Below, one piece after another: positions 1,848 to 49,792 of a DNA stretch of 64,000 nucleotides. A model generated the notes under the pieces. That model was not told the DNA's origin, made no database searches, and worked only from the letters and a program-made list of their open reading frames with translations. A program made the translations under genes and the position numbers. The DNA is taken from positions 1,271,725-1,335,724 of the forward strand of contig NW_006767434.1 of NCBI RefSeq assembly GCF_000264995.1. The letters are read 5' to 3'. The DNA comes from Punctularia strigosozonata HHB-11173 SS5 (lineage: Eukaryota; Basidiomycota; Agaricomycetes; Corticiales; Punctulariaceae). The stretch's first letter is position 1. Each line of letters opens with the position of its first letter.

Positions 1848-4833
1848 CTACCGATACGTATGCGACTGGTTGCCGCTCTTGACATCCCGATGTGCTCGCG
1901 GCGGCGCGGGGAAGTCACCATACTGATACCCAGCGGCGCCTGCGAGATCGAAAGCCTGGAGTCAGCAAGCTCCCTATAGTCAAGGGCAAGAGAGCAACAC
2001 GCCGCACCTTTTGCCTTCGGCTTCTTCTTAGGCCGGCCCACCGGCTCCGGCGCCCCTCCATCCTCGTCCAGTATGTTAGACGCCGTCGCGTAGTCGAACT
2101 CTTCGACGACGCCATCGTCCGGGACACCTCCTGCGTCTGCTTTACCAGGCGCCACCTCGGCCTTGCCATCCTTCTTTTCCTTGTTCCGCTTTCTTTTCTT
2201 CTGCTGCCGCTGTCCGACAACGACAATCGCGTCGTCAACCACCTCGCGCACGACGGGCTGTCGCTGCGCGAGAGGGACGAACGGCACCTCGATCTGCTCC
2301 GGCACGGGTTTCGCGTCCTCCTCCGCTGCCGGTGGTGGCGGTGGTGGCGTTTTCGGCACCGAGGCGCCAACGGTGAGCGACCCGCGTATCCGCGCGAGGA
2401 CGTGCCTGATGCGTGACGTTTGGCCTTCGCCAGAGGAGGAGGACGAGAACAGACGCTTGGGCGAGCCAAAGAGAGAGCTGCGAGTGGTCGAGCATGAAGC
2501 TTTGCTTCGCACACTGACCGTATCGGCTTCCTGAGCGACAGTTGAAGTAGCCGAGGGCAAAGCTGTAGAAGACGAAGGCCCGAGAAGAGTAGAAGCGGTG
2601 GTCGCCAGCGGAGCATTGGACGAAGCAGGAGCTACAAACGAAGAAGAGAGAGCAATCGATCAAACCACGTCCCTCTAGGGCATCGCCAGAGCTTACCGAA
2701 CGACCACAGCCCAGTCGAAGGAGATGACGCATCCGACGCTGATCCTTCAACGACGTCATATGCCTTACCTGTAGTGCGCGGCGGTTCATCAGGAATCATC
2801 TCTGCCTCTCCTGCCTCCACGGCCTTCGTTTGACCCCCCTCGCTATCCAGCTCGCTCTTCACGGCCGCCCGAACGATGTCCAACAGCTCCTTCGCGCGCC
2901 TCCTCACGACCGGCGGCACGGGTCTGAACGCCGCCAGCAGACCCGGCATATCCGCCGGCGGGCTCTCTGCGATCTGGAACAGGTAGTGGTTTGGGAGCAC
3001 GTACCGCGCGCTCTCGTCCTCCTCGCGCGCGACACGGTCCCGCCACGCGTGCACGGCCCTGTACACCGCGCGCTGCACGGGGGGCATCGCGCCCGCGCTC
3101 TTGTTCCACTTGCGCGCGAGCGTGTCCCACCCCGCGGGCCCGGTGCCGTTGTCGGCGTCGTACAGCTCGCGCTCGAACGTCCGGAGGGTGGTCTGGGCCG
3201 AGCGTGCGAGGACCTCGCGGAGGAGCCACGTCGCGCCGTCCGATGGGGTGAGATGCGAGATGGGCGTCTCAAGCGTGATGTCAACGGGTGTGTAGGCGGC
3301 GAAGGCGGGCGAGGTGCCGCGCTCGAGTAAGGCGTGCCGCAGATGATCGTAGATGTAGAGCAGGTAGTGCGTGTCCGAGCGCGCGTAGTCGAGCATCTCC
3401 TGCGGAAGCGGTCTGAGAGAGGCGAATGCACAAGGGTCAGCGGTAGCGTTCGGGATGAGATGGTACATAAGAGACCTCACCTTATTCGCCAATCGGCGAG
3501 CTGGTACCGCTTGTCCGCGATGAAGTCGCAGTACATCTCGAGGAGGGACGCCAAACCATGTCTGGGAAAATCTGATCCCGGGAGAAATGAATATCAGCGA
3601 AAGAGCGATACCTAGCAAACGGACGACGCACGGAGGACCTTGGACGCATGGAAGGTGTCGAATAAGCCCACGACGAAGACGTTGAAATCTTGCTGGAGCC
3701 ATTGTATGTCTGACTCGGCACCGTGGAAAACCTTGACGATTCTTGGGTCCGTGAAGACCTCATTCAGCTCCTCGAGCTCGTCCCGGAGGACGAGTGTGTC
3801 GACGATCCAGTCCTCCGTCCGGGTGCTGATCTGCATCAGGCACACGAAGCCAGCGAAGGTACGGTAACTGTGGTGCTCGAGGTCGACGGCGATCGCGTCC
3901 GCTAGGCGGAGCTTTTCGAGCATTAAGGCAAACGCGGCGGGAGTGGCGACCCACGTGAACGGCGTCTCGGCGAAGGACTTGGGCGGCGTCGGTTGTCCGG
4001 GAGAGAAGAGGTGTGCGGGATAAGATACGTGTGTTATTTCGTAGTGGTAGGGATGTATCCTACAAAGCAGTCTGCGGTGAGCGACGTGCTTGTCAGCATC
4101 CAATCCAGCACATACCCGGCGCTAGTGGCATCGCCGCCTTCCTCGTCCTGGAAGCGGTAGCCAAGCGGCACTTGGGCGTTGTACTTGTGCTTCAGCGTTG
4201 GTTTCCAGGGGTCCTGGGACGCGTTATCCACCGTGCGGGTGAAGGAAAGCTGTGGCTTGCGGAGGTGGCTGGCATGCTGCAAGGCAGGGTCCAGACGGCC
4301 AAGGGACGGCTTCGGCTTCGGTGCACTGGATTCGGACTGCTGTGGTGGTTGTCGTTGCTGTGTCCGTGAGACGGACGGGTTGACAGCGATGGCCGGGGCT
4401 TTGTTTTTGCCCAGAAATTCGTCGAGGTTCATATCCTGTGTAGCCACGACTGAGCCTTTCTCGATGTCCAGACACGACACAATTTACTCACAGCCCGCTC
4501 GAGCAGTTGGTCCATCGCGTCGACTGCCACCGCCTGGAACCGATCAACAAGGTCCTCCCCACTCTCCGCCCGCGCCTTGCCCTTCCGTGCACCCGATGGA
4601 TCTGCGGATGTCGCAAGCGCGAGCATCTTGTTGATCAGACCCAGCACCCGTCCAGAGCACACATCTATGGCGTCTGCATATCCCGCGTCGACCGAGCGGT
4701 GAAAGCCGACGTCCTGGGGCAGCGCTGCCATGGAAGACTTGATGGCCTTGAGCGCCGCGGTCTGCGCGCCGTTGTTGTAGTCCTCGAAAGTGTCCGACGC
4801 CAGTTTGCGGGCGGTAGAGCTGCTGGCCGCCAT
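1848..4833 (-). CDS. RRP6: Exosome 3'-5' exonuclease Rrp6
   Basis: Nuclear exosome-associated 3'-5' exoribonuclease (EXOSC10 family), which trims and degrades nuclear RNAs in the nucleus and nucleolus. Exons on the minus strand: 4492-4833, 4116-4435, 3632-4059, 3481-3571, 2697-3412, 2008-2631, 1848-1939. All phases close, giving 870 aa. Residues 1-114 fit the N-terminal PMC2NT region that binds Rrp47. The DEDD-Y site is complete: Asp280 and Glu282 (AVDLEHH), Asp338 (HGAESDIQW), Tyr403 and Asp407 (DYARSDTHY). An HRDC domain follows at about 470-560. The tail is disordered and Lys-rich, and the short last exon encodes the conserved terminus SGNQSHTYR. The start at 4833 is the first ATG in frame. 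Divergent from the regulator at 5158, with 324 bp between start codons. Fungal Rrp6 is usually 700-900 aa, so length is normal. Confidence 0.95.
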
Positions 4834-5157: not shown

Positions 5158-8100
5158 ATGTCTGGCGATGAGAGCGACGCGGTGGAGGACTGGCGGCCCT
5201 CTCCCGGCGACGGAACGCGCAAACGCACGCGTATCACGAAGGCTTGCGACTTTTGCAAGCGGAGGAAAGGTCGTTTGGTTCCAATAAGCTTCTATTCTAC
5301 TGGATCTCATTCATGTTCACATCTGTTACAGTGAAATGTGAGGACGCTTTTGTAGCTTCAGCGCTCTGAAGGAGGATTGACTGTGGACCCGCAGGCGACG
5401 GTACGACGCCAGAACGCCCCAGATGTACGACATGCACATCCTTCGACCTTGATTGTACTTTTGCTACTTTGAGCAAGGTCTGTCGGAACACTTTCTGCAG
5501 TATATAACGACTCATACGGATCGCGCAGAAACGGGGGCCGCCGAAAAAGTGAAGGCAAGAAATGCAGCGACACTGCGTATAGGCTAATGCTACTCTACTA
5601 GGCCCCGAAACTCCTTGACAGACCCATCATTGACCTCCAGCGTCAGCGCCAGTCCCACGCTCATCGCCAGCAGTAGCGCCATCCCTTCCGCCTCCGCCTC
5701 CACCGCTTCGAGTTCAGCAATCGGCAGTTCTCCATCCGCTGCTTCTCCCTCCGACGACGAGGACGAGGAAGACGACGACGGGAATCCGGTTGAGCCCCTT
5801 TCCGAATGGCTCGAGAAGCTTACGCTTGATCCGCTGCACCCGCGCCAAAGCTCTAACGACAATAGTGCGGTGCGCATGCTCAAGGCGGCGTTACAGACGA
5901 GGCAACTCGAGCACGCATACAAGCATGCGACTAAGTCCCGTCGGCCCGAATTCTGGCAGGTGCATCCTGTACGTTCCCCTCCCTTCCACCCGTCCTTAGT
6001 CTCTTCACTGACCATCGTAACGACAGTGGGAAATGGAAGAGCTCTCCATTTACGCTCACTCGCTCTCCACCCACACCCTCACCTTCCCCGACCCGGATCT
6101 CCTACACGAACTCACCAATCTCTACTTCGCGCACTCGAATGTCTACACTCCGATCCTGCACCGGCCCATGTTCGAGAAGGCTCTCGCCGACGGCCTGCAT
6201 CTGCGCGACACCGGCTTTGGCGGCGTCGTCCTACTCGTGTGCGCGATCGCGAGCCGGTACACGCATGATCCCCGCGTCTTCCTCCGTGGCGCGCCGACTC
6301 AGAGCGCCGGCTGGAAGTGGTACTCCCAGGTTGAGATGGTCCGCAAGTCGCCGCTTGCGCCGCCGAGGCTGTACGACGTACAACAGTACGCGGTGAGCTT
6401 ATCGCGTCCATTCTCGCTCATCTCTCTTGCTCATCACTTTGGTCCTTCTTTCCTTGACAGCTCGCGTCGGTGTTCCTTGTCGGATGCTCCGCGCCACACG
6501 TAACGTGGAACATGATCGGCCTTGGCGTGCGGATGTGCCTCGACGTTAGCGCGCATCGGAAGAAGGTCTACAAGGCCACAGGGCCGGACCAGATCATCGA
6601 GGAGCAGTGGAAGCGCGCCTTCTGGTTCGTCACAGGGGATAGTCTGTGCCCTCTCCTTCTCGCACACGCTAATGCGGATCATGTGTTCGCAGGGGCCTGG
6701 TGAACATGGATCGTATCGCGTCGAACGAGATGGGCCGCGTCGTCGCAGTCCTGGATGAGGAGTGAGTGAGCGTCGATGTCCCTGTGTCCGGTGTTGTGCT
6801 GTATTAGCTGATCTGATATGCAAGTATCGATGCCCCGCTCCCGTGCGAGTGTGACGACGAGTACTTCGTCTCGCCGGACCGAACGCGCTACTTCGTGCAG
6901 CCGCCGGAGAAGCCGTCACTCGTCGCTTATGTCAACATTATGATTTCGCTACGTTCCATCCAGCTCAAGGCTCAGCGTTCGCTGGTGGGTGCATTCTATA
7001 ACATGTTGTCCATGGTATCGCACAAGCTGATAATGGGTAACGTTGTTACCATCCAGTTCTCCACCTTGCGCGAAAAAAGCTACGATTACGAGGTAAAGGT
7101 TGTCGCTGAGCTGAACGCTGATCTCGATCGCTGGCGTGATGCTGTTCCGTCTCACCGTGCGCTCGTTCCTCTTTGTCTCCCCGCTTCGTTCTGATGATCC
7201 TCGCGTTCGTTGCTCAGTGAGATGGGAGACCGCGCTCGCCGCCGCTGATGACCATCCGATCTTTTTCCGCCAATGCACCGCGTCGTGGACCGTCTACCAT
7301 TACGCCCGGATCATCATTCACCGCCCGTTCGCCGTCGGCCTTCGCCGCAATACGCCACTTGGTATGGCGTCCGTGGAGGTGTGCTACAATTCAGCCAGGG
7401 AGATCGCGCGGATGTTCCGGGACCTGCTCAAACGGGATAGCGGGCCTTTTGGGCTGCACATGGTGAACACCTATCCTTCCGCTAAATGGACGTTGACGAG
7501 CTCAATGTCGATTCGGAATGACAGTTTTCGGCGTTCACGGCAGCGAGCGTGCTCCTCCTCATGAAGTGGACCCAGGACCGTGAGGGCGATGGCACACTTG
7601 AATCTCCGAGCGAGCAAGACCTGAAGCACGTGTACACCTGCATGAACGTCATCAAGACCTCCGAGCCACGGTTAGTTCTTTCCTCATTCATATGTCGACC
7701 ACGCCTACGAATTCTAACTTGCGTGATGGCAAATACAGATGGTACCTCGCCGGCCGATTATGGTATGTATTCCCATTGACTTTGCATCCGATGACCTCAT
7801 TATGGCTGACAATGCTGTGATGACGCGGGCTGATAGGGACATACTCTACGAACTAGTCACAGTCGTACAGGCGCTGCCTTCCACGCCATCGCACAGCCAT
7901 ACCCCCGACGGCACAGCCGATGGCTCCACGGGCGCTGCAGCCGGAAATAGCAGCAGCAGCTTCCTGGCACAGACGGCCGACATCACCCCCTCGAGGGCGG
8001 CGACCGCTGCGCACAATACGAGCATGCATCTGGCTGATGCGCCGTCCTCGGACACTGCCACGAATTGCGCGACCACCAGTTTTCTAACGACTGATGCCGC

Positions 8101-8539
8101 GCTTCCTTCCCCTCGGAATACGGCAATCGGCCCCCAGATCGACTTCGGCGGGCACGCGCCCCTGCCGGTGTGGGCACATCGGGAGCTATCTGCCTTTGGG
8201 GACCACCCCGCCGCAGCCGGAGCGCTCGCCGCCCCCATCTCGGCGTCATCGACCCCATTAGACCCGTCGTCATCAGCATCCCAGCAGAGCGCGGACCCCT
8301 GGACGCCGCTCGGGAGCTTCCTCGCGGACCAGAACATCCTCGGCGCGATGTACAGCGAGAACACGCTGCCCGGCTACGCGAACGCGTTCTCGTTTGCGTT
8401 TGGTGGGCAGCACGACGCGGGGTTGAGCGCCGCGGCGCAGGAGGAGCTGGGCATGGCTATGGGAGCGGCCTCGTCGTCAGCGATGGTGACGGACGAGACC
8501 ATCCTCGGATGGGCCGCTGGCTTCTCGGATGCGTTGTGA
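5158..8539 (+). CDS. Zn(II)2Cys6 transcription factor, copy A
   Basis: Fungal-specific nuclear regulator with an N-terminal Zn2Cys6 DNA-binding domain and a middle homology region (Fungal_trans type); target genes unknown. Exons: 5158-5269, 5332-5337, 5395-5477, 5529-5548, 5602-5968, 6027-6392, 6461-6624, 6693-6761, 6825-6984, 7057-7156, 7218-7462, 7525-7670, 7739-7762, 7837-8539. All phases close, giving 854 aa. The zinc cluster reads KACDFCKRRK, then VKCDG, then RCTTCTSFDLDC, so its third Cys is encoded across a 6-nt exon. A KRGPPKK basic linker follows, then an acidic Ser-rich stretch (DDEDEEDDD), then the regulatory domain with SAGWKWYSQ and PPRLYDVQQYA. The last 234 codons are low-complexity Ser/Ala/Gln and probably the activation region. 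The start is the ATG at 5158. Same 14-exon layout as the tandem copy at 10718. Confidence 0.93.
5332..5337 (+). other. 6-nt micro-exon in copy A
   Basis: TGAAAT lies between an intron ending CAG at 5331 and an intron starting GTGAGG at 5338. With its split neighbours it encodes Val-Lys-Cys, restoring the spacing C-x2-C-x6-C of the zinc cluster. Skipping it keeps the frame but removes the third Cys. The paralogue has the equivalent exon at 10934-10939. Confidence 0.85.
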
Positions 8540-10717: not shown

Positions 10718-13700
10718 ATGTCGTCGGTTGTCAGAGTCAGCCTGGAGAGCGACTCACACGACGAAGAGGTCGTCCAACCTTCCGCGGTCGCACACATTGC
10801 CCGAAAGAGGACGCGCATCGCCAAAGCTTGCGACTTTTGTAAACGCCGGAAAGGTGCGTGTTTGCGACATGCCGAGGGTAGATCGCGCGAAAGAGAGAGA
10901 GAGAGCTGACGAACGTCGTTTTGTTTCTGACAGTCAAGTGTCCGTTTTGCCGTTCATCCCTGTGACATCGAGCTAGCGTCGGACTCATCCTCTGCTCTAC
11001 ACTAGGCGACGGGGTTACACCGGAACGCCTCAAGTGCAGTACATGTATCTCCTTTGGTCTCGAATGCGTGTTCTCTTCGGAAAGCAAGGTGAGCGTATAC
11101 CATATGTGATATATGCGGCTGCTTGAATACACGTACATCGCCTCCGCAGAAACGCGGCCCTCCCAAGAGGCCCAAGGCCGATACACCCTCTGATCTATCC
11201 CGTTCCAAGGTGCGTGTTTCGTTTCACGTCCATCTCCGAAACGACTGATGCTCGTTAATCCTCCTCGAAACTTGCGCTCAACGCCAGTCCTCCTCGCCCG
11301 ACCAACCTCCCTATCTTCTCAGTCGCAACATCCCGGGATCCTTCGAGAATACCGCTGTCGCCGAGCGCGACGGTCCTGGCCTCCTCCACGACGATGATGG
11401 CGAAGACGATCCCGACGCGCGCTGGACTGCCGCCGCTCACTCGGCCGACCAGCAGGCGGTCACTGACGCGGACGCGCATACCGTCGTCTCGCTCTCCGAG
11501 TTCCTCGCCAAGCTCGAGCTCGACCCGCTCATGCCGCGCCAGGTCGTGAACGACAACACGGACGTTGCCCGGCTCGTGAAGGCCGCCATGCGCCCCTATC
11601 GGGACGTGTTCCAGCAAGCAATGCGTGCCCGTCGACAGGAGTTTTGGCAGATCCGGCCTGTGAGAGCGCATATATACGCACATGCACTCTCCTTACACTC
11701 TTGCTCACGTTTCTCTTGAACAACACAGTGGGAGATTGCGCAGCTGACGATCTACGAAACCGCCGTCTCCCAACAACGCTTCGTCTTCCCCGACGCGGAC
11801 CTCATCCCGCTCCTCGTTGCGCTCTACTTCGATCACCTCAACATCTACTCCCCCATCCTCCACCGCCCGACGTTCGAGTCCGCCCTCCGGGACGGCCTTC
11901 ACCTGCGCGACAACGGGTTCGGCGCCGTACTGCTGCTCGTGTGTGCCCTCGGCGCGCGCTACACGGACGATCCACGCATACTCCTCGACCGGTCCGCGTC
12001 CCAGTCCGCCGGCTGGCAGTGGTACAACCAGGCGCAGATGATCCGGAAGTCGCCGCTAGCGCCGCCGCGGCTGTACGACGTCCAGCAGTACTGTGTACGT
12101 GATCCCTTCCCGGTGTCATGTGCATCCATTGACACGAACACGTCCTAGTTGGCGTCACAGTTCCTCCTGGGGAGCACGGCTCCTCATGTGGGCTGGAACA
12201 TGATCGGCCTCGGCCTGCGCCTTTGTCAAGACGTGAGCGCCCACCGGGGGAGGGTGTATCGAGGCGTGGGCGAGGGCCAGATCGTGGAGGAGCAGTGGAA
12301 ACGCGTCTTCTGGTAAGCCTCGTGCGTGGTGTGGGATAAACGCCATGTCGTCTCATCTCATAACGCGACGCAGGATACTGGTTAACCTCGACCGAACAAC
12401 CTGCAGCGAGCTGGGGCGGAGCCTCGCAATGCTTGATGATGAGTGAGCACTCCCATAAGAGCGGTTTTTTCGACGACGCAACCCTAACAAGATGCCCCGT
12501 AACCACAGCATCGATGCGCCCCTGCCTCACGAGTGCGATGACGAGTATTGGCGTACTCCGGACGGAAAGTACTTCCAGCAACCGCCTGGAAAACCCTCGA
12601 TGGCGTCCCACCTCATCTGGAATATCAAAATCCGCTCCATTCAGGCCTTCGCTACCCGCACCCTCGTCAGTAGTTTATGAACCCCTGGCTGTCTCGAACC
12701 CGGGAATAATTGAACGCTGACGAGTTATAGTTCGCTGTCTCCCGACCGAAGAGCTACGAGTGGGAAGAGCGCATCACAGCTAGGCTGGATCTGGCGCTCG
12801 AGAAGTGGAAGGAGAAGATACCCGAACATCGTGCGTGTCGATTGTCGGTCCCTTCTTTGCCATAGCAGAACGCTCATCGAATGGCATGCTTATATGCAGT
12901 GCGCTGGAACCCGTCCCAACCGAATGCGGTGTTCCTCCGGCAGGCGGCCTCACTTTGGTGCATGTACCACTACACGCGAATCATCATCCACCGGCCGTTC
13001 ATCATCTCCGCCCGGCGTGCGACCCCACTCGGTATCTCTTCGCTTGCGATCTGCTGCTCCTCTGCCCGCTGCCTCGCGCGTATTCTCGAAGTGGTCATGC
13101 GCGATTACCCGCCGATGAGTTTGCATATCGTATGTCCGCTAGACCTGCTACGCATCTCTTGCTAGATCGCTCATCCTTGCGTCTTGCAAGATCGCGGCGT
13201 TCGCCGCGGCCAGTATTCTCCTGCTTTCGCGGTGGGGAGACGGTGGACCGGGTGCGGAGCCGCCATCGCAGGAGGATATGCGGGATGTGCTCGTCTTCCT
13301 CGGTTTCATCAGATCTGGCGAGCGCAGGTATGTCGTTCAATGGTTATTTCTTGGCGCCCGATGAAAGCGTCGTCTGACGTGTCTGCATCAATGGGCAGAT
13401 GGAACCTCGCAGGCCGTTTATTGTAAGACTTGTCTTTGATCGATTTGTCCTGCGAGCACTAATTTCACGGGATGTAGCGACCTCTTGGGCGAGATGATCA
13501 CCGTCGTCCGCCGCGTGGCAGAGAAGAAGGGGAAATCGATCAAGATGAGCGGTACTAGTTTGAGTGCAGGGCTGGGTACCACCAACGTCCTCGACATGGC
13601 GGTTATGGCTCCTGAGTCCTCCGGTCAAGGCAACCAAGTTCAGCCCATAGTGGACTCCATGTCCCCTCCCCCGCCAAAGGTGACAGCATCCTTCCCGCCC

Positions 13701-14153
13701 ACACAAGATAGGTCGTCCTTCGGCGTTCCCGATTACGACGTGCACTTCACGCTGCAGCAGCAGCACGAACAAGGGCAGGGTCAGCAAGACCAAGCGCCCC
13801 AGCTCTACGCGCCGACGCTCGGCTCTGACGTGTGGACGGCGTTCGACGACTTCCTGGCTCAGCAGAATCTCGTCGGTGCAGACCTGGTCGGCGCCTACCA
13901 CGCGCCGCACAACCTGCCCGGCGCGGTGCAGCAGGGGTACGACCACCCCCAACCCCATCAGAGCGCATCGTCCGTGCAGGCATACGGCTCCGCCATGTCC
14001 GAGCTCGGGCTACCAAGTTTTCCCGGCGAAGCCGTTGGGATACAGTCACAATCGTTCGATTTTCTGATGGAGGCTGTCGCGCAGGGGAATGAGGGGCAAG
14101 GGCAGGACGAAACGTTTGCGAGCTGGGCGGCGAGTCTCCCTGGATCGGAGTGA
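10718..14153 (+). CDS. Zn(II)2Cys6 transcription factor, copy B
   Basis: Tandem paralogue of the regulator at 5158. Exons: 10718-10853, 10934-10939, 11006-11088, 11150-11209, 11288-11659, 11729-12094, 12149-12312, 12374-12442, 12509-12665, 12731-12830, 12900-13129, 13191-13327, 13399-13422, 13478-14153. Phases close, giving 859 aa. The zinc cluster is KACDFCKRRK, VKCDG, KCSTCISFGLEC. Seven of the 14 exons match copy A in length exactly (6, 83, 366, 164, 69, 100 and 24 nt); the linker exons differ most. Shared regulatory-domain signatures include SAGWQWYNQ, PPRLYDVQQYC and YHYTRIIIHRPF. The C-terminal part is Gln-rich (HFTLQQQHEQGQGQQDQ) and likely an activation region. Start at the ATG at 10718. 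The first intron contains a short GA repeat (10891-10905). DNA target and signal are unknown. Confidence 0.93.
10934..10939 (+). other. 6-nt micro-exon in copy B
   Basis: TCAAGT lies between CAG (ending 10933) and GTCCGT (starting 10940). It supplies the same Val-Lys-Cys step as the micro-exon at 5332-5337 and is at the same codon phase. The flanking introns are 80 and 66 nt. Confidence 0.85.
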
Positions 14154-47000: not shown

Positions 47001-48421
47001 AACCTTCTGTCATGAACTGTAACTTGCAATCTGATACACCGGAAGTCAGTCATAACGCCGATTGCGAGAACGAGCATAGATTACGGGCATACGCTGAACC
47101 CCACCCATTCCTACGCATGTACACCAAGCTCTCCGCGTGCTCGTTCCTGATTTCTGAAGGAATTTCGGTGATTCGGGAGGCGGAAGCAGTCGTCGCAAGT
47201 TTCACAGGGATCGCTGGGATACAGAGGTGCCTATAGCATGCCACTGTATGGAATTCGATGATTTGTCAGAGGGCATCCCAACGAGTTAAGCCGGACGTGT
47301 CAATGCGCGACCGTTTCAAGAGCAAAAAGACTCGTGCTTCAAGCATCGATGCTCAAGACTTAGCGCAAACGCTCGCATATCTGAGACTAAGTGAAGTTCG
47401 AGCGCGAATGGTGTAGTTCTTGTGCAAGAGATCATGAGGTGAGGTGACGGGTTTCGCCAGCGTGAAGAGGTTTTTCTCACGGCTTCGTGTTGGCTTCCGA
47501 CACCGAAGTGCTCGTCAGGTTGCTTGCCTGAAGCTTGCTGTGGTCCAGAGTCATGCTCCGGCACTATCTAAACCTGAATATGCCTGCCTCCGCGGACGAC
47601 TCGCATGTGTGAGACCACGTTTAACCGCGCCAGACTTCCAAGAATTCTCGCCCTTTGGTGCCCCTCCGAATCCGCCGAGTCTTTATCAAGTCCAAGCAAG
47701 CGCCAGTGATATTGTGCCTCAGCTCCTGCACAATGGATATTTTATCGATCGATCGAACAGTACGCGTACAACCCCTCCCTAGAAACCTCGGGTCTAGTAG
47801 TTTCTCCTCCAGTCGAATCTCGGCTGCGGGCTCATACACATATACCAGGAGGCCAGACGATGAGAGTCAATGGATGATACCAACTGAACATCCCATTATC
47901 CAACAGTCTTGTTGTCCAAGCGGGTCTGCCTCTGCCCTTGTTGTCATCGAGATGTCTCTATAGCCGTGGTGGTGGCTTGTGGGTGCCGAATGATGCTGTC
48001 GTATCCTGGCTGATCAAGGGCGAAGCCACGGTCTTTGCTCCCCTTTCGGCATGCAACGATTTGTTCGCCCGTTTGTTCTTTCTCCCTTAAGATTTGTTAT
48101 TTGCGAGCCAGGACACCCTCGAATTTCTGCCTTTGTTCGACTAGTATTCCTCGATCCCGTTCCTGAGGGTTTCCCTTTGTGCAAGGAGAGCCTTATATCC
48201 CCGGGTCTTTGGCTCAGAATCTCTTGCGTTGTTGCTCAGCTGTATTTCTGCTTCGCGCACGTTCAGGGCCTTCTCAGTAAGTACCACTATCTATCCCGCA
48301 TCGCGCAAGATATTGAAGTGCTCTCATCCAGAATTTGTAGCGTCGACGAACACGCCAGTGACGACGGCGTTTCCCCGGACCCAAGCTTGGCACCTCCTGG
48401 GACAACGCTAGATTCTCAAAC
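44001..48421. other. Gene-poor stretch, nothing recognised
   Basis: 4.4 kb without a supportable gene. GC content and codon pattern look lower than in neighbouring genes. Several short open frames exist. A minus-strand frame at 44440-44655 is hydrophobic (LSAWQPPLHRVRFWPYVYLV) and the + frame at 45489-45785 has Cys-rich CDCRQCCC at its end, but neither joins convincingly to other exons. No terminal repeats, tRNA or tandem repeats were seen. Probably decayed duplicates or old repeats. Confidence 0.45.
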
Positions 48422-49792
48422 ATGGTTCATCCCGAGAGATTGCCACCGGACGTATGGCTCGAGGTTTTCGACCTCGTCAAAGAAGATTGGCCGTACGTCA
48501 TGCTCCGGATAGGTGGCGTCTGCAAGTACTGGCGTTGGATCGTGCGCACCACCCCCGGGCTGTGGCGCGTGCTCGAGCTCAAAAGCCGCCACTCGAGCGA
48601 CCTGGCGAGGCTTTGGAAGGACTGCTCCGGAAACCGGATCAGATGTCTGCGTATCCACGAAGAAGCATTCGCCAGCGCCTTAGGCTGGGCGCAAGAGCTG
48701 CGTACTCTTGACCCGACAGCTCTGAAGAAGCTGTCTCTACATTGCCCCTCCACCGAGCACCTGGTGTGGTCCTTGAACACATCTCTCGCTCCACTCAGCA
48801 CCCGCGCGCTGCCCCAACTCGAAGGCGCTTGGTTCTATCTCACCAACCAAGCTTCGAAAAAGCCCGTGAACCTTTCCGCCTTCTGGAACTGCATCTTCGG
48901 TCACTTCTTCAGCACCCCCCAGGGTCCTCTGGTGAAAGAACTCGGTTTCTTGCACTTCTCCGAGCTCCACCCGCGATGGGTTCCGCTGCACATTCCGCCC
49001 GAGTTCACCTTCGCCCACCTGCGCAAGCTCGACCTCGCGCGCCTCTACCCGTCCCACATCGTCGCCTTCCTCGTCCGCTGCCCCAAGCTCGAAGCGCTGT
49101 CCATCGCCGATTGCCTCCAGGACGACCCGGACCCTCCCCGGCACGCGCTCACGCTCCCGACCGTGCGAGACCTGCAGATCGACGGCATCGACTGCGACCT
49201 GCTCGGCCCTTTGCTCTGCCCGAACCTGGTCCACCTCGAGATGCTCGAGGACTACTCGCCGCAGCCCCCGGCCCTCCTCCGGGCGCGGCTCGACTCCGTC
49301 CGCGAGCTCGAGCTCCCCTTCTGCACCTGGCCGGCGCAGACGCTGTACGACACGATCCTCCGCTGCCCGAACGTCGAGTTCCTCGACCTGTGCGCCTACC
49401 GCCGCGACGTGAACGACGTGCTCCGTCTGCTCTCTTTCCCGGTGGCCGATCCCGCGGTGCGCGACGGGTCGACGGTCCCGCTGAAGAAGCTGACGCGCCT
49501 CAGCCTCTGGATGACGCAGGACGTACCGATCGAGCCGGATGTGCTCGTGGACCTGGTCGACGCGAGGTTGCCTCTGGGGTTGCGGGGTCCGACCAGAGCG
49601 AGGGGAGAGGTCACTCCGCTCGAGTCGATCAATCTCGACGAATGCGCGGTGACGACGACCCGGCCCTTCGAGTGGTTAGAAGAGCATCTCCGCGAGTTCA
49701 TCACGGATCGCGTAGAAGAACGCTCGCCGGAAGATGAGTATACCGAGTACAGCGGTTCCGAAGCATCGGACGTAGTGGAGTACTTAACCTGA
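48422..49792 (+). CDS. F-box/LRR protein, intronless
   Basis: A single-exon 456-aa F-box protein. The F-box is N-terminal (ERLPPDVWLEVFDLVKED, CKYWRWIVRTTPGLWRVLEL), the form common in mushroom F-box proteins, where the Trp-rich stretch follows helix 2. Leucine-rich segments follow: PTALKKLSLHCPS, FAHLRKLDLARLYP, CPKLEALSIADC, PTVRDLQIDGIDCDLLG, CPNLVHLEMLEDYS, LDSVRELELPFC, CPNVEFLDLCAYR. The C-terminus is acidic (DEYTEYSGSEASD). Probably an SCF substrate receptor with unknown target. It has no intron while almost every neighbour has many, which could mean retroposition or simply intron-poor ancestry. Convergent with the gene ending at 49930. Confidence 0.88.
   Translation: MVHPERLPPDVWLEVFDLVKEDWPYVMLRIGGVCKYWRWIVRTTPGLWRVLELKSRHSSDLARLWKDCSGNRIRCLRIHEEAFASALGWAQELRTLDPTALKKLSLHCPSTEHLVWSLNTSLAPLSTRALPQLEGAWFYLTNQASKKPVNLSAFWNCIFGHFFSTPQGPLVKELGFLHFSELHPRWVPLHIPPEFTFAHLRKLDLARLYPSHIVAFLVRCPKLEALSIADCLQDDPDPPRHALTLPTVRDLQIDGIDCDLLGPLLCPNLVHLEMLEDYSPQPPALLRARLDSVRELELPFCTWPAQTLYDTILRCPNVEFLDLCAYRRDVNDVLRLLSFPVADPAVRDGSTVPLKKLTRLSLWMTQDVPIEPDVLVDLVDARLPLGLRGPTRARGEVTPLESINLDECAVTTTRPFEWLEEHLREFITDRVEERSPEDEYTEYSGSEASDVVEYLT

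What the first reader, a model, noticed from the sequence alone, without database searches (positions are those of the whole stretch)
5270..5394. 6-nt micro-exon restores the zinc cluster (copy A)
Seen: CKRRK is followed by a 62-nt intron, then TGAAAT, then a 57-nt intron, then GCGACG. With the 6-nt exon the product reads CKRRKVKCDG, which keeps C-x2-C-x6-C. Without it the frame is kept but the third Cys is lost. Known: Zn2Cys6 proteins need all six Cys. Inference: inclusion or skipping could switch DNA binding on and off without changing frame. Such an exon would be missed by most gene finders.
Basis: partly seen in the sequence, partly recalled or inferred. Interest (0 to 1): 0.75.

Follow-up and report, generated by a model that had tools for sequence, protein, structure and literature searches.

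The report
Ancient six-base exon in zinc cluster
A six-base exon completes the DNA-binding zinc cluster of a family of mushroom gene regulators; it seems to be old and is left out of many deposited gene models, but nothing seen here shows that the fungus uses it as a switch.

Summary
In copy A (5158-8539, +; Punctularia strigosozonata) a 62-nt intron, the 6-nt exon TGAAAT (5332-5337) and a 57-nt intron separate CKRRK from CDG. Inclusion gives a standard Zn2Cys6 cluster; skipping keeps the frame and loses Cys3. It is not chance: tandem paralogue copy B has TCAAGT (10934-10939) at the same codon and phase between different introns, and four more loci of this genome have such an exon. Shuffled sequence reproduces it in 0.045-0.65% of cases per locus. 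It is probably old and often mis-annotated: of 150 homologues that show the start of the cluster, 92 are complete and 47 lack exactly these residues, leaving a Ser or Gly that fits the predicted codon junction in 47 of 47 (a capped, biased sample). Psilocybe cubensis has apparently one gene deposited both ways. Seven of seven transcript-like entries are complete, though the gene structure behind them was not seen. The on/off switch is not supported: no real skipping was found, but no RNA reads could be examined, so it is not excluded. Precedents: Xlr2's 20-nt zinc-cluster microexon (Trichoderma), 6-bp exons in Phanerochaete P450 genes.

The parts
5158..8539 (+). Copy A gene, hand model: 14 exons, 13 GT-AG introns, 854 aa, Zn2Cys6 cluster plus fungal transcription factor region
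   Evidence: Single open frame after joining exons; Zn_clus 41.1 bits for the N-terminal piece; deposited part-model P0001 carries PF04082
5158..5269 (+). Exon 1 of copy A: Cys1 and Cys2 (CDFCKRRK), ends after base 1 of the Val codon
5270..5331 (+). Intron 1, 62 nt, GTCGTT..TTACAG; weak donor (only 1 of 22 reference donors scores lower)
5332..5337 (+). The 6-nt micro-exon TGAAAT: completes Val, gives Lys, starts the Cys3 codon
5338..5394 (+). Intron 2, 57 nt, GTGAGG..CCGCAG; in-frame stop if kept
5395..5477 (+). Exon 3 of copy A: end of the Cys3 codon, then Cys4 to Cys6
10718..14153 (+). Copy B gene, tandem paralogue, hand model: 14 exons, 859 aa
   Evidence: 50.5% identical to copy A over 649 aa
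10854..10933 (+). Copy B intron 1, 80 nt
10934..10939 (+). Copy B micro-exon TCAAGT, same codon and phase, V-K-C, two synonymous differences from copy A
10940..11005 (+). Copy B intron 2, 66 nt

Best explanation
This is an old, normally included 6-nt exon of an Agaricomycete family of Zn2Cys6 transcription factors. Both flanking introns are short and in phase 1: the first splits the Val/Ile codon after its first base, the second splits the Cys3 codon as T|GY. Each intron is probably recognised and removed as a unit (intron definition), so the exon needs no recognition of its own. The spliced message reads [V/I]-[K/R]-Cys3, and the cluster can hold zinc and bind DNA. Skipping keeps the frame but removes Cys3, so a skipped protein should not bind DNA; the skipped forms in databases are mostly annotation products. 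Shown here: place, phase and recurrence in six loci of one genome, and matching scars in deposited homologues. Inferred: default inclusion in copy A, intron definition, and loss of DNA binding on skipping.
For: Exact exon and phase in copies A and B and in L017, L012, L011, L014. Shuffles give it in 0.045-0.65% per locus. Joint intervals of 125 and 152 nt exceed all 22 reference introns, 51-78 nt. Scar residue agrees with the predicted junction codon in 47 of 47 skipped homologues: 43 Ser with an Ile relative, 2 Gly with a Val relative, 2 Ser with an Asn relative. Seven of seven transcript-like entries complete. Apparently one Psilocybe gene deposited both ways, and five of five genus pairs of mixed form. 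Punctularia's own P0098 model includes the exon of L011. Zn_clus score falls from 41.1 to 22.0 (A) and 45.4 to 26.3 (B) without it.
Against: No RNA read of copy A or B was seen. DNA comes from one genome; elsewhere the exon is inferred from protein scars. The transcript-like entries show the residues, not that a 6-nt exon was spliced, since their genes were not seen, and five of the seven are of the Val type, while 45 of 47 scars are Ser. Copy A's intron-1 donor is weak (second lowest) and copy B's second donor and acceptor are lowish (5 of 22 score lower each). Any-residue versions of the exon arise in 3.1-14.5% of shuffles.
Confidence: 0.82

Rival explanations
1. Regulated switch: the cell includes or skips the 6 nt to make a DNA-binding or a non-binding protein in the same frame, the latter perhaps competing for partners.
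For: Length is a multiple of three, so both forms keep the frame. Xlr2 in Trichoderma is a published zinc-cluster microexon tied to glucose. 47 of 150 homologues are deposited in skipped form, and I cannot tell which of those models had RNA support. Weak donor in copy A, although that donor serves both forms.
Against: Seven of seven transcript-like entries are complete; one gene deposited both ways and five mixed genus pairs. The length is already fixed by the spacing of the cluster, so frame-neutrality needs no switch. In Xlr2 the authors saw no reads joining exons 1 and 3.
Confidence: 0.1
2. Copy A is spliced with one 125-nt intron only and is a five-Cys protein or a decaying gene; the 6-nt exon is a relic or a coincidence.
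For: Copy A sits in a long-branched Punctularia clade; its deposited model lacks the cluster; a related locus, copy C, runs into repeat-like sequence downstream; weak donor.
Against: Copies A and B keep full frames of 854 and 859 aa through 13 canonical introns each and conserve V-K-C with synonymous differences; shuffles give such an exon in 0.15% for A and 0.65% for B.
Confidence: 0.04
3. The residues are supplied another way in copy A, for example by a longer exon from a different donor or acceptor.
For: Four homologue models read IRC and run on through what looks like intron 2 (P0109, P0114, P0128, P0136).
Against: In copies A and B keeping intron 1 or intron 2 meets an in-frame stop; in copy A TGAAAT was the only 6-nt exon found that restores the motif.
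Confidence: 0.04

Closest known systems
Xlr2 microexon of Trichoderma virens (PMC11121469; abstract and passages seen)
   Same: A tiny exon inside the zinc cluster of a Zn2Cys6 factor with a fungal transcription factor domain, missed by the deposited model and kept across its genus.
   Different: 20 nt, coding PCRRCE with two Cys, not frame-neutral, and in another part of the cluster; there inclusion is reported to follow glucose. Here 6 nt at Cys3, frame-neutral, no regulation shown.
P450 micro-exons of Phanerochaete chrysosporium (PMC1184071; passages seen)
   Same: White-rot basidiomycete genes with exons down to 6 bp between short introns.
   Different: Another protein family; models largely predicted; no deep conservation of one exon described in the passages seen.
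One-nucleotide exon of Fusarium CYP621A (PMC12940212; passages seen)
   Same: Tiny exon kept because it completes an invariant motif; found by comparing relatives and by the doubled intron length; there confirmed by reads.
   Different: 1 nt, enzyme gene, ascomycete.
Gal4/Hap1/Lac9 zinc clusters in the PDB
   Same: The included copy A cluster aligns to 1cld, 1hwt and 1d66.
   Different: Yeast proteins; whether their genes are split here was not tested.

Membership tests
Zn2Cys6 binuclear cluster (PF00172) | Six Cys with C-x2-C-x6-C-x(5-12)-C-x2-C-x(6-8)-C spacing (spacing recalled) | tested here: met
   Copies A and B with the exon included: 41.1 and 45.4 bits, cut-off 21. Without it five Cys; scores 22.0 and 26.3.
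Fungal-specific transcription factor domain (PF04082) | Middle homology region after the cluster | tested here: met
   P0001, the deposited part of copy A, lists PF04082; orthologue-like P0098 98.4 bits. Copies A and B themselves were not scanned for it.
Micro-exon (up to about 30 nt, between two spliceosomal introns) | Internal exon with canonical GT-AG introns on both sides | tested here: met
   6 nt, GT..AG on both sides in all six loci.
Micro-exon (up to about 30 nt, between two spliceosomal introns) | Seen in spliced RNA | not testable with these tools
   No reads available; seven transcript-like homologue entries are complete, gene structure unseen.
Switch-like (regulated) microexon, as Xlr2 | Inclusion changes with condition | not testable with these tools
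   No expression data.
Xlr2 microexon (same exon) | Same length and place in the cluster | tested here: not met
   Here 6 nt at Cys3; Xlr2's is 20 nt coding PCRRCE.
Ace3/Roc1 cellulase activators | Falls in the Ace3/Roc1 clade | not tested
   Only passages of PMC12997857 seen; no Ace3/Roc1 sequence was compared.

The most novel reading that the evidence does not exclude
A 6-nt exon has been kept through much of Agaricomycete history as a frame-neutral device: skipped messages make a five-Cys, DNA-blind form that tempers the full-length factor, so that some of the many skipped models in databases record a real second isoform.
Probability: 0.08. Interest if true: 0.85.

Novelty: new member of a known kind. 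Interest (0 to 1): 0.55.

Why it matters
If right, a family of mushroom transcription factors is deposited with a broken or missing DNA-binding domain in many models: 47 of the 150 seen here lack the exon's residues (not an unbiased sample), and copy A's own model lacks the domain altogether. The skipped form sits at the edge of detection: 4 of 4 skipped forms that I scanned still pass the Pfam cut-off, while the protein database's own column lists the domain for 5 of 47. That affects regulator catalogues, binding-site work and expression constructs in wood-decay and edible fungi. The Ser or Gly scar before Asp-Gly gives a simple rule to find the errors by machine, and the exon is a natural case for studying how a 6-nt exon is spliced between short introns.

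Tried and rejected
Alternatives in copy A: the interval holds no other 6-nt exon that restores [VI][KR]C. Keeping either intron meets a stop in frame in copies A, B, L017, L011 and L014; in L012 neither kept intron meets a stop within the interval, but both lengths (50 and 52 nt) shift the frame.

Is it general to zinc-cluster genes? Protein search of the genome gave 15 matches in 8 loci: copies A and B, L011, L012 and L014 have the exon; L015 has no intron there, L016 has one elsewhere, and no cluster was found in L013. The sixth locus with the exon, copy C (L010/L017), came from a pattern search. Of 42 Pfam zinc-cluster matches in the genome I read 20 loci covering 21 matches, picked by their partial coverage and not at random, by eye only: I saw no such 6-nt exon at this spot, several clusters split by one intron, two other small exons, and at least two matches that look like chance (L021, L033). 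L030 there is the same gene as L016. The other 21 matches were not read.

Names: NCBIfam gave 0 families for 3 proteins. Ace3/Roc1 was considered after PMC12997857 (passages) and not tested. Ten large open frames of the window were scanned for neighbours: no regulator-linked cluster seen. Ten paper searches were run; seven had microexon or micro-exon among the terms and three did not. None listed a report of this exon by title or abstract. The library lacks bioRxiv and most subscription papers. PMC4014442 and PMC3990503 (passages) only mention a microexon option of a read aligner. I recall long-read re-annotation of Coprinopsis cinerea, which I could not find or check.

Counts and bias: 171 proteins were held; 21 without C-x2-C-[RKH] in the first 300 residues were left out. 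Searches listed the best 120 of 300 and 120 of 197 hits; one search used a skipped-form query. 47 of 150 is thus no frequency. Slightly different patterns gave 46 skipped of 151 proteins, 48, 49 and 47; I use 47, which leaves 11 others, one of them (P0031) a distant complete cluster with a shorter loop. The Fisher p of 0.001 ignores kinship and rests on two Gly cases. In one search the two Ser/Asn pairs have a relative (P0053) with NRC.

Full report
What is there. The deposited protein PUNSTDRAFT_61047 of Punctularia strigosozonata HHB-11173 SS5 (P0001) is 100% identical to part of copy A, and its contig has the length of the window's contig. The species is in Corticiales, Agaricomycetes. Copy A (5158-8539) and copy B (10718-14153) are tandem paralogues on the + strand. 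I modelled each by hand: 14 exons, 13 GT-AG introns, open frames of 854 and 859 aa. They are 50.5% identical over 649 aa and form a clade (100/100) with a third Punctularia protein, P0002.

The observation. TGAAAT completes a Val codon, supplies Lys and starts the codon of Cys3. With it the product reads CDFCKRRKVKCDG; without it CDFCKRRKGDG, in frame and with five Cys. Keeping intron 1 or intron 2 meets an in-frame stop.

More than chance. Copy B has TCAAGT at the same codon and phase, again V-K-C, through two synonymous differences, between introns of 80 and 66 nt. Four more loci of the genome have it: L017 (copy C) TGAAAT, L012 TCAAAT, L011 and L014 TTCGAT, the last two coding I-R-C. In 20,000 dinucleotide shuffles per locus an AG-6nt-GT that restores [VI][KR]C arose in 0.045-0.65%; any two residues followed by Cys in 3.1-14.5%. 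The joint interval, 125 nt in A and 152 in B, is longer than each of 22 other introns of A and B, 51-78 nt.

Splice sites. Against those 22 introns the donor of copy A intron 1 is weak (1 scores lower) and the donor after the micro-exon average (11 lower); its two acceptors are good (16 and 21 lower). In copy B the first donor and acceptor are strong (22 and 20 lower), the second ones lowish (5 and 5 lower). The weak donor in copy A serves inclusion and skipping alike, so it does not favour skipping.

The rest of the genome. Of 8 loci found by a protein search with copy A, 5 have the exon (A, B, L011, L012, L014); L015 has no intron there, L016 has one elsewhere, and no cluster was found in L013. 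The Pfam search of the genome (42 matches) lists neither copy A nor copy B, as expected when no single frame holds the domain.

Homologues elsewhere. Three protein searches gave 171 proteins. Of these, 150 show C-x2-C-[RKH]xx[KR]: 92 complete, 47 lacking exactly Cys3 and one further residue, 11 other. If an exon lies as in Punctularia, skipping it joins the first base of the lost codon to GY: Ser where relatives have Ile (A+GY), Gly where they have Val (G+GY). I paired each skipped model with its nearest complete relative, using only sequence downstream of the cluster: 43 Ser/Ile, 2 Gly/Val, 2 Ser/Asn; Asn codons also begin with A, so 47 of 47 agree. Only the two Gly cases test the rule against a constant Ser. 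Four models (P0109, P0114, P0128, P0136) read IRC and continue through what looks like intron 2, and two Trametes models (P0165, P0168) read Q-[SF]-D-V, as CAG|T[TC]CGAT|GT would give (back-translation, my inference).

Breadth. By taxonomy look-up of one species each, skipped models occur in Russulales, Polyporales, Boletales, Agaricales, Hymenochaetales and Gloeophyllales, and an intron-2 read-through in Auriculariales (Exidia); DNA is in hand for Corticiales. The exon most likely predates the split of these orders. For the Cantharellales-like and Phallomycetidae-like entries (names recalled: Rhizoctonia, Botryobasidium, Sphaerobolus, Gautieria) all models seen are complete, which does not tell whether the exon or fused exons are present.

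Skipping: biology or annotation? Psilocybe cubensis has apparently one gene deposited skipped (P0116) and complete (P0151): the first 110 alignment columns are the same except for the lost residues. Pairs from Lactarius, Suillus, Russula, Pisolithus and Coprinopsis, five of five compared, have one complete and one skipped model (pairs chosen for that). Seven entries look like transcripts, six from source 'lgn' alone (870-925 aa frames on contigs of 2781-3129 nt: P0069, P0080, P0093, P0100, P0110, P0130) and one from 'jgi' (P0045, 489 aa on 2029 nt); all seven are complete. That they are cDNA is my inference from long unbroken frames in an intron-rich family, and they show the residues, not the splicing of a 6-nt exon. 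Clustering at 90% identity could hide skipped isoforms. On balance I read the skipped models as mostly annotation error. Copy A's own model starts in exon 6 and ends by reading into the intron before the 24-nt exon 13, so it lacks the DNA-binding domain and the C-terminal part. The model of L011 (P0098) includes the exon.

Function. The nearest solved clusters are Lac9, Hap1/Cyp1 and Gal4. By recalled Gal4 numbering the exon covers the two residues before Cys21 and part of its codon; Cys21 is a zinc ligand, so a skipped form should lose the fold. Zn_clus scores drop from 41.1 to 22.0 bits (A) and 45.4 to 26.3 (B), against a cut-off of 21; skipped P0034 and P0063 score 21.6 and 21.1. The protein database's own column lists the domain for only 5 of the 47 skipped proteins. 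I favour splicing by intron definition, which is usual for short fungal introns (recalled; the paper I asked for was not held).

What is known. Xlr2 of Trichoderma virens has a 20-nt zinc-cluster microexon, reported as included without glucose; no reads joining exons 1 and 3 were seen there (PMC11121469, abstract and passages). Phanerochaete P450 genes have exons down to 6 bp (PMC1184071, passages). Fusarium CYP621A has a 1-nt exon (PMC12940212, passages). So this is a new member of a known kind, notable for its size, its likely age and the number of deposited proteins that lack it. My searches listed no report of it, within the limits of that library.

Verdict. Observation confirmed. Interpretation: the structural part is supported; the switch is not supported and not excluded.

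Noticed in passing
window 7739-7762 and 13399-13422, +: A second small exon, 24 nt, at the same place in copies A and B (W-[YN]-LAGRL-[WF]); the deposited model P0001 ends by reading into the intron just before it.
   Followed up: partly
window 5529-5548 (copy A) and 11150-11209 (copy B), +: Exon 4 is 20 nt in copy A and 60 nt in copy B; the intron after it is in a different place in the two paralogues.
   Followed up: no
window 6985-7056, +: P0001 keeps this 72-nt intron in frame; the homologues' sequence favours removing it.
   Followed up: partly
L020 and L024: By eye, other zinc-cluster genes seem to have small exons of 12 nt (CGTCAAATAAAG, L020) and 13 nt (GAAGAGGAAGATG, L024) between Cys2 and Cys3; small exons may recur in these clusters.
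   Followed up: no
L010 / L017: Copy C has the micro-exon, but repeat-like sequence follows in a later exon, so the gene may be interrupted; its rest may be L013. Described only.
   Followed up: partly
window 2635-3759, -: Open frame with HRDC (55.4 bits) and the end of a 3'-5' exonuclease domain: part of an Rrp6-like gene (name recalled).
   Followed up: no
window 48362-49789, +: Open frame with a weak F-box-like match below its cut-off and an LRR match just above its cut-off.
   Followed up: no
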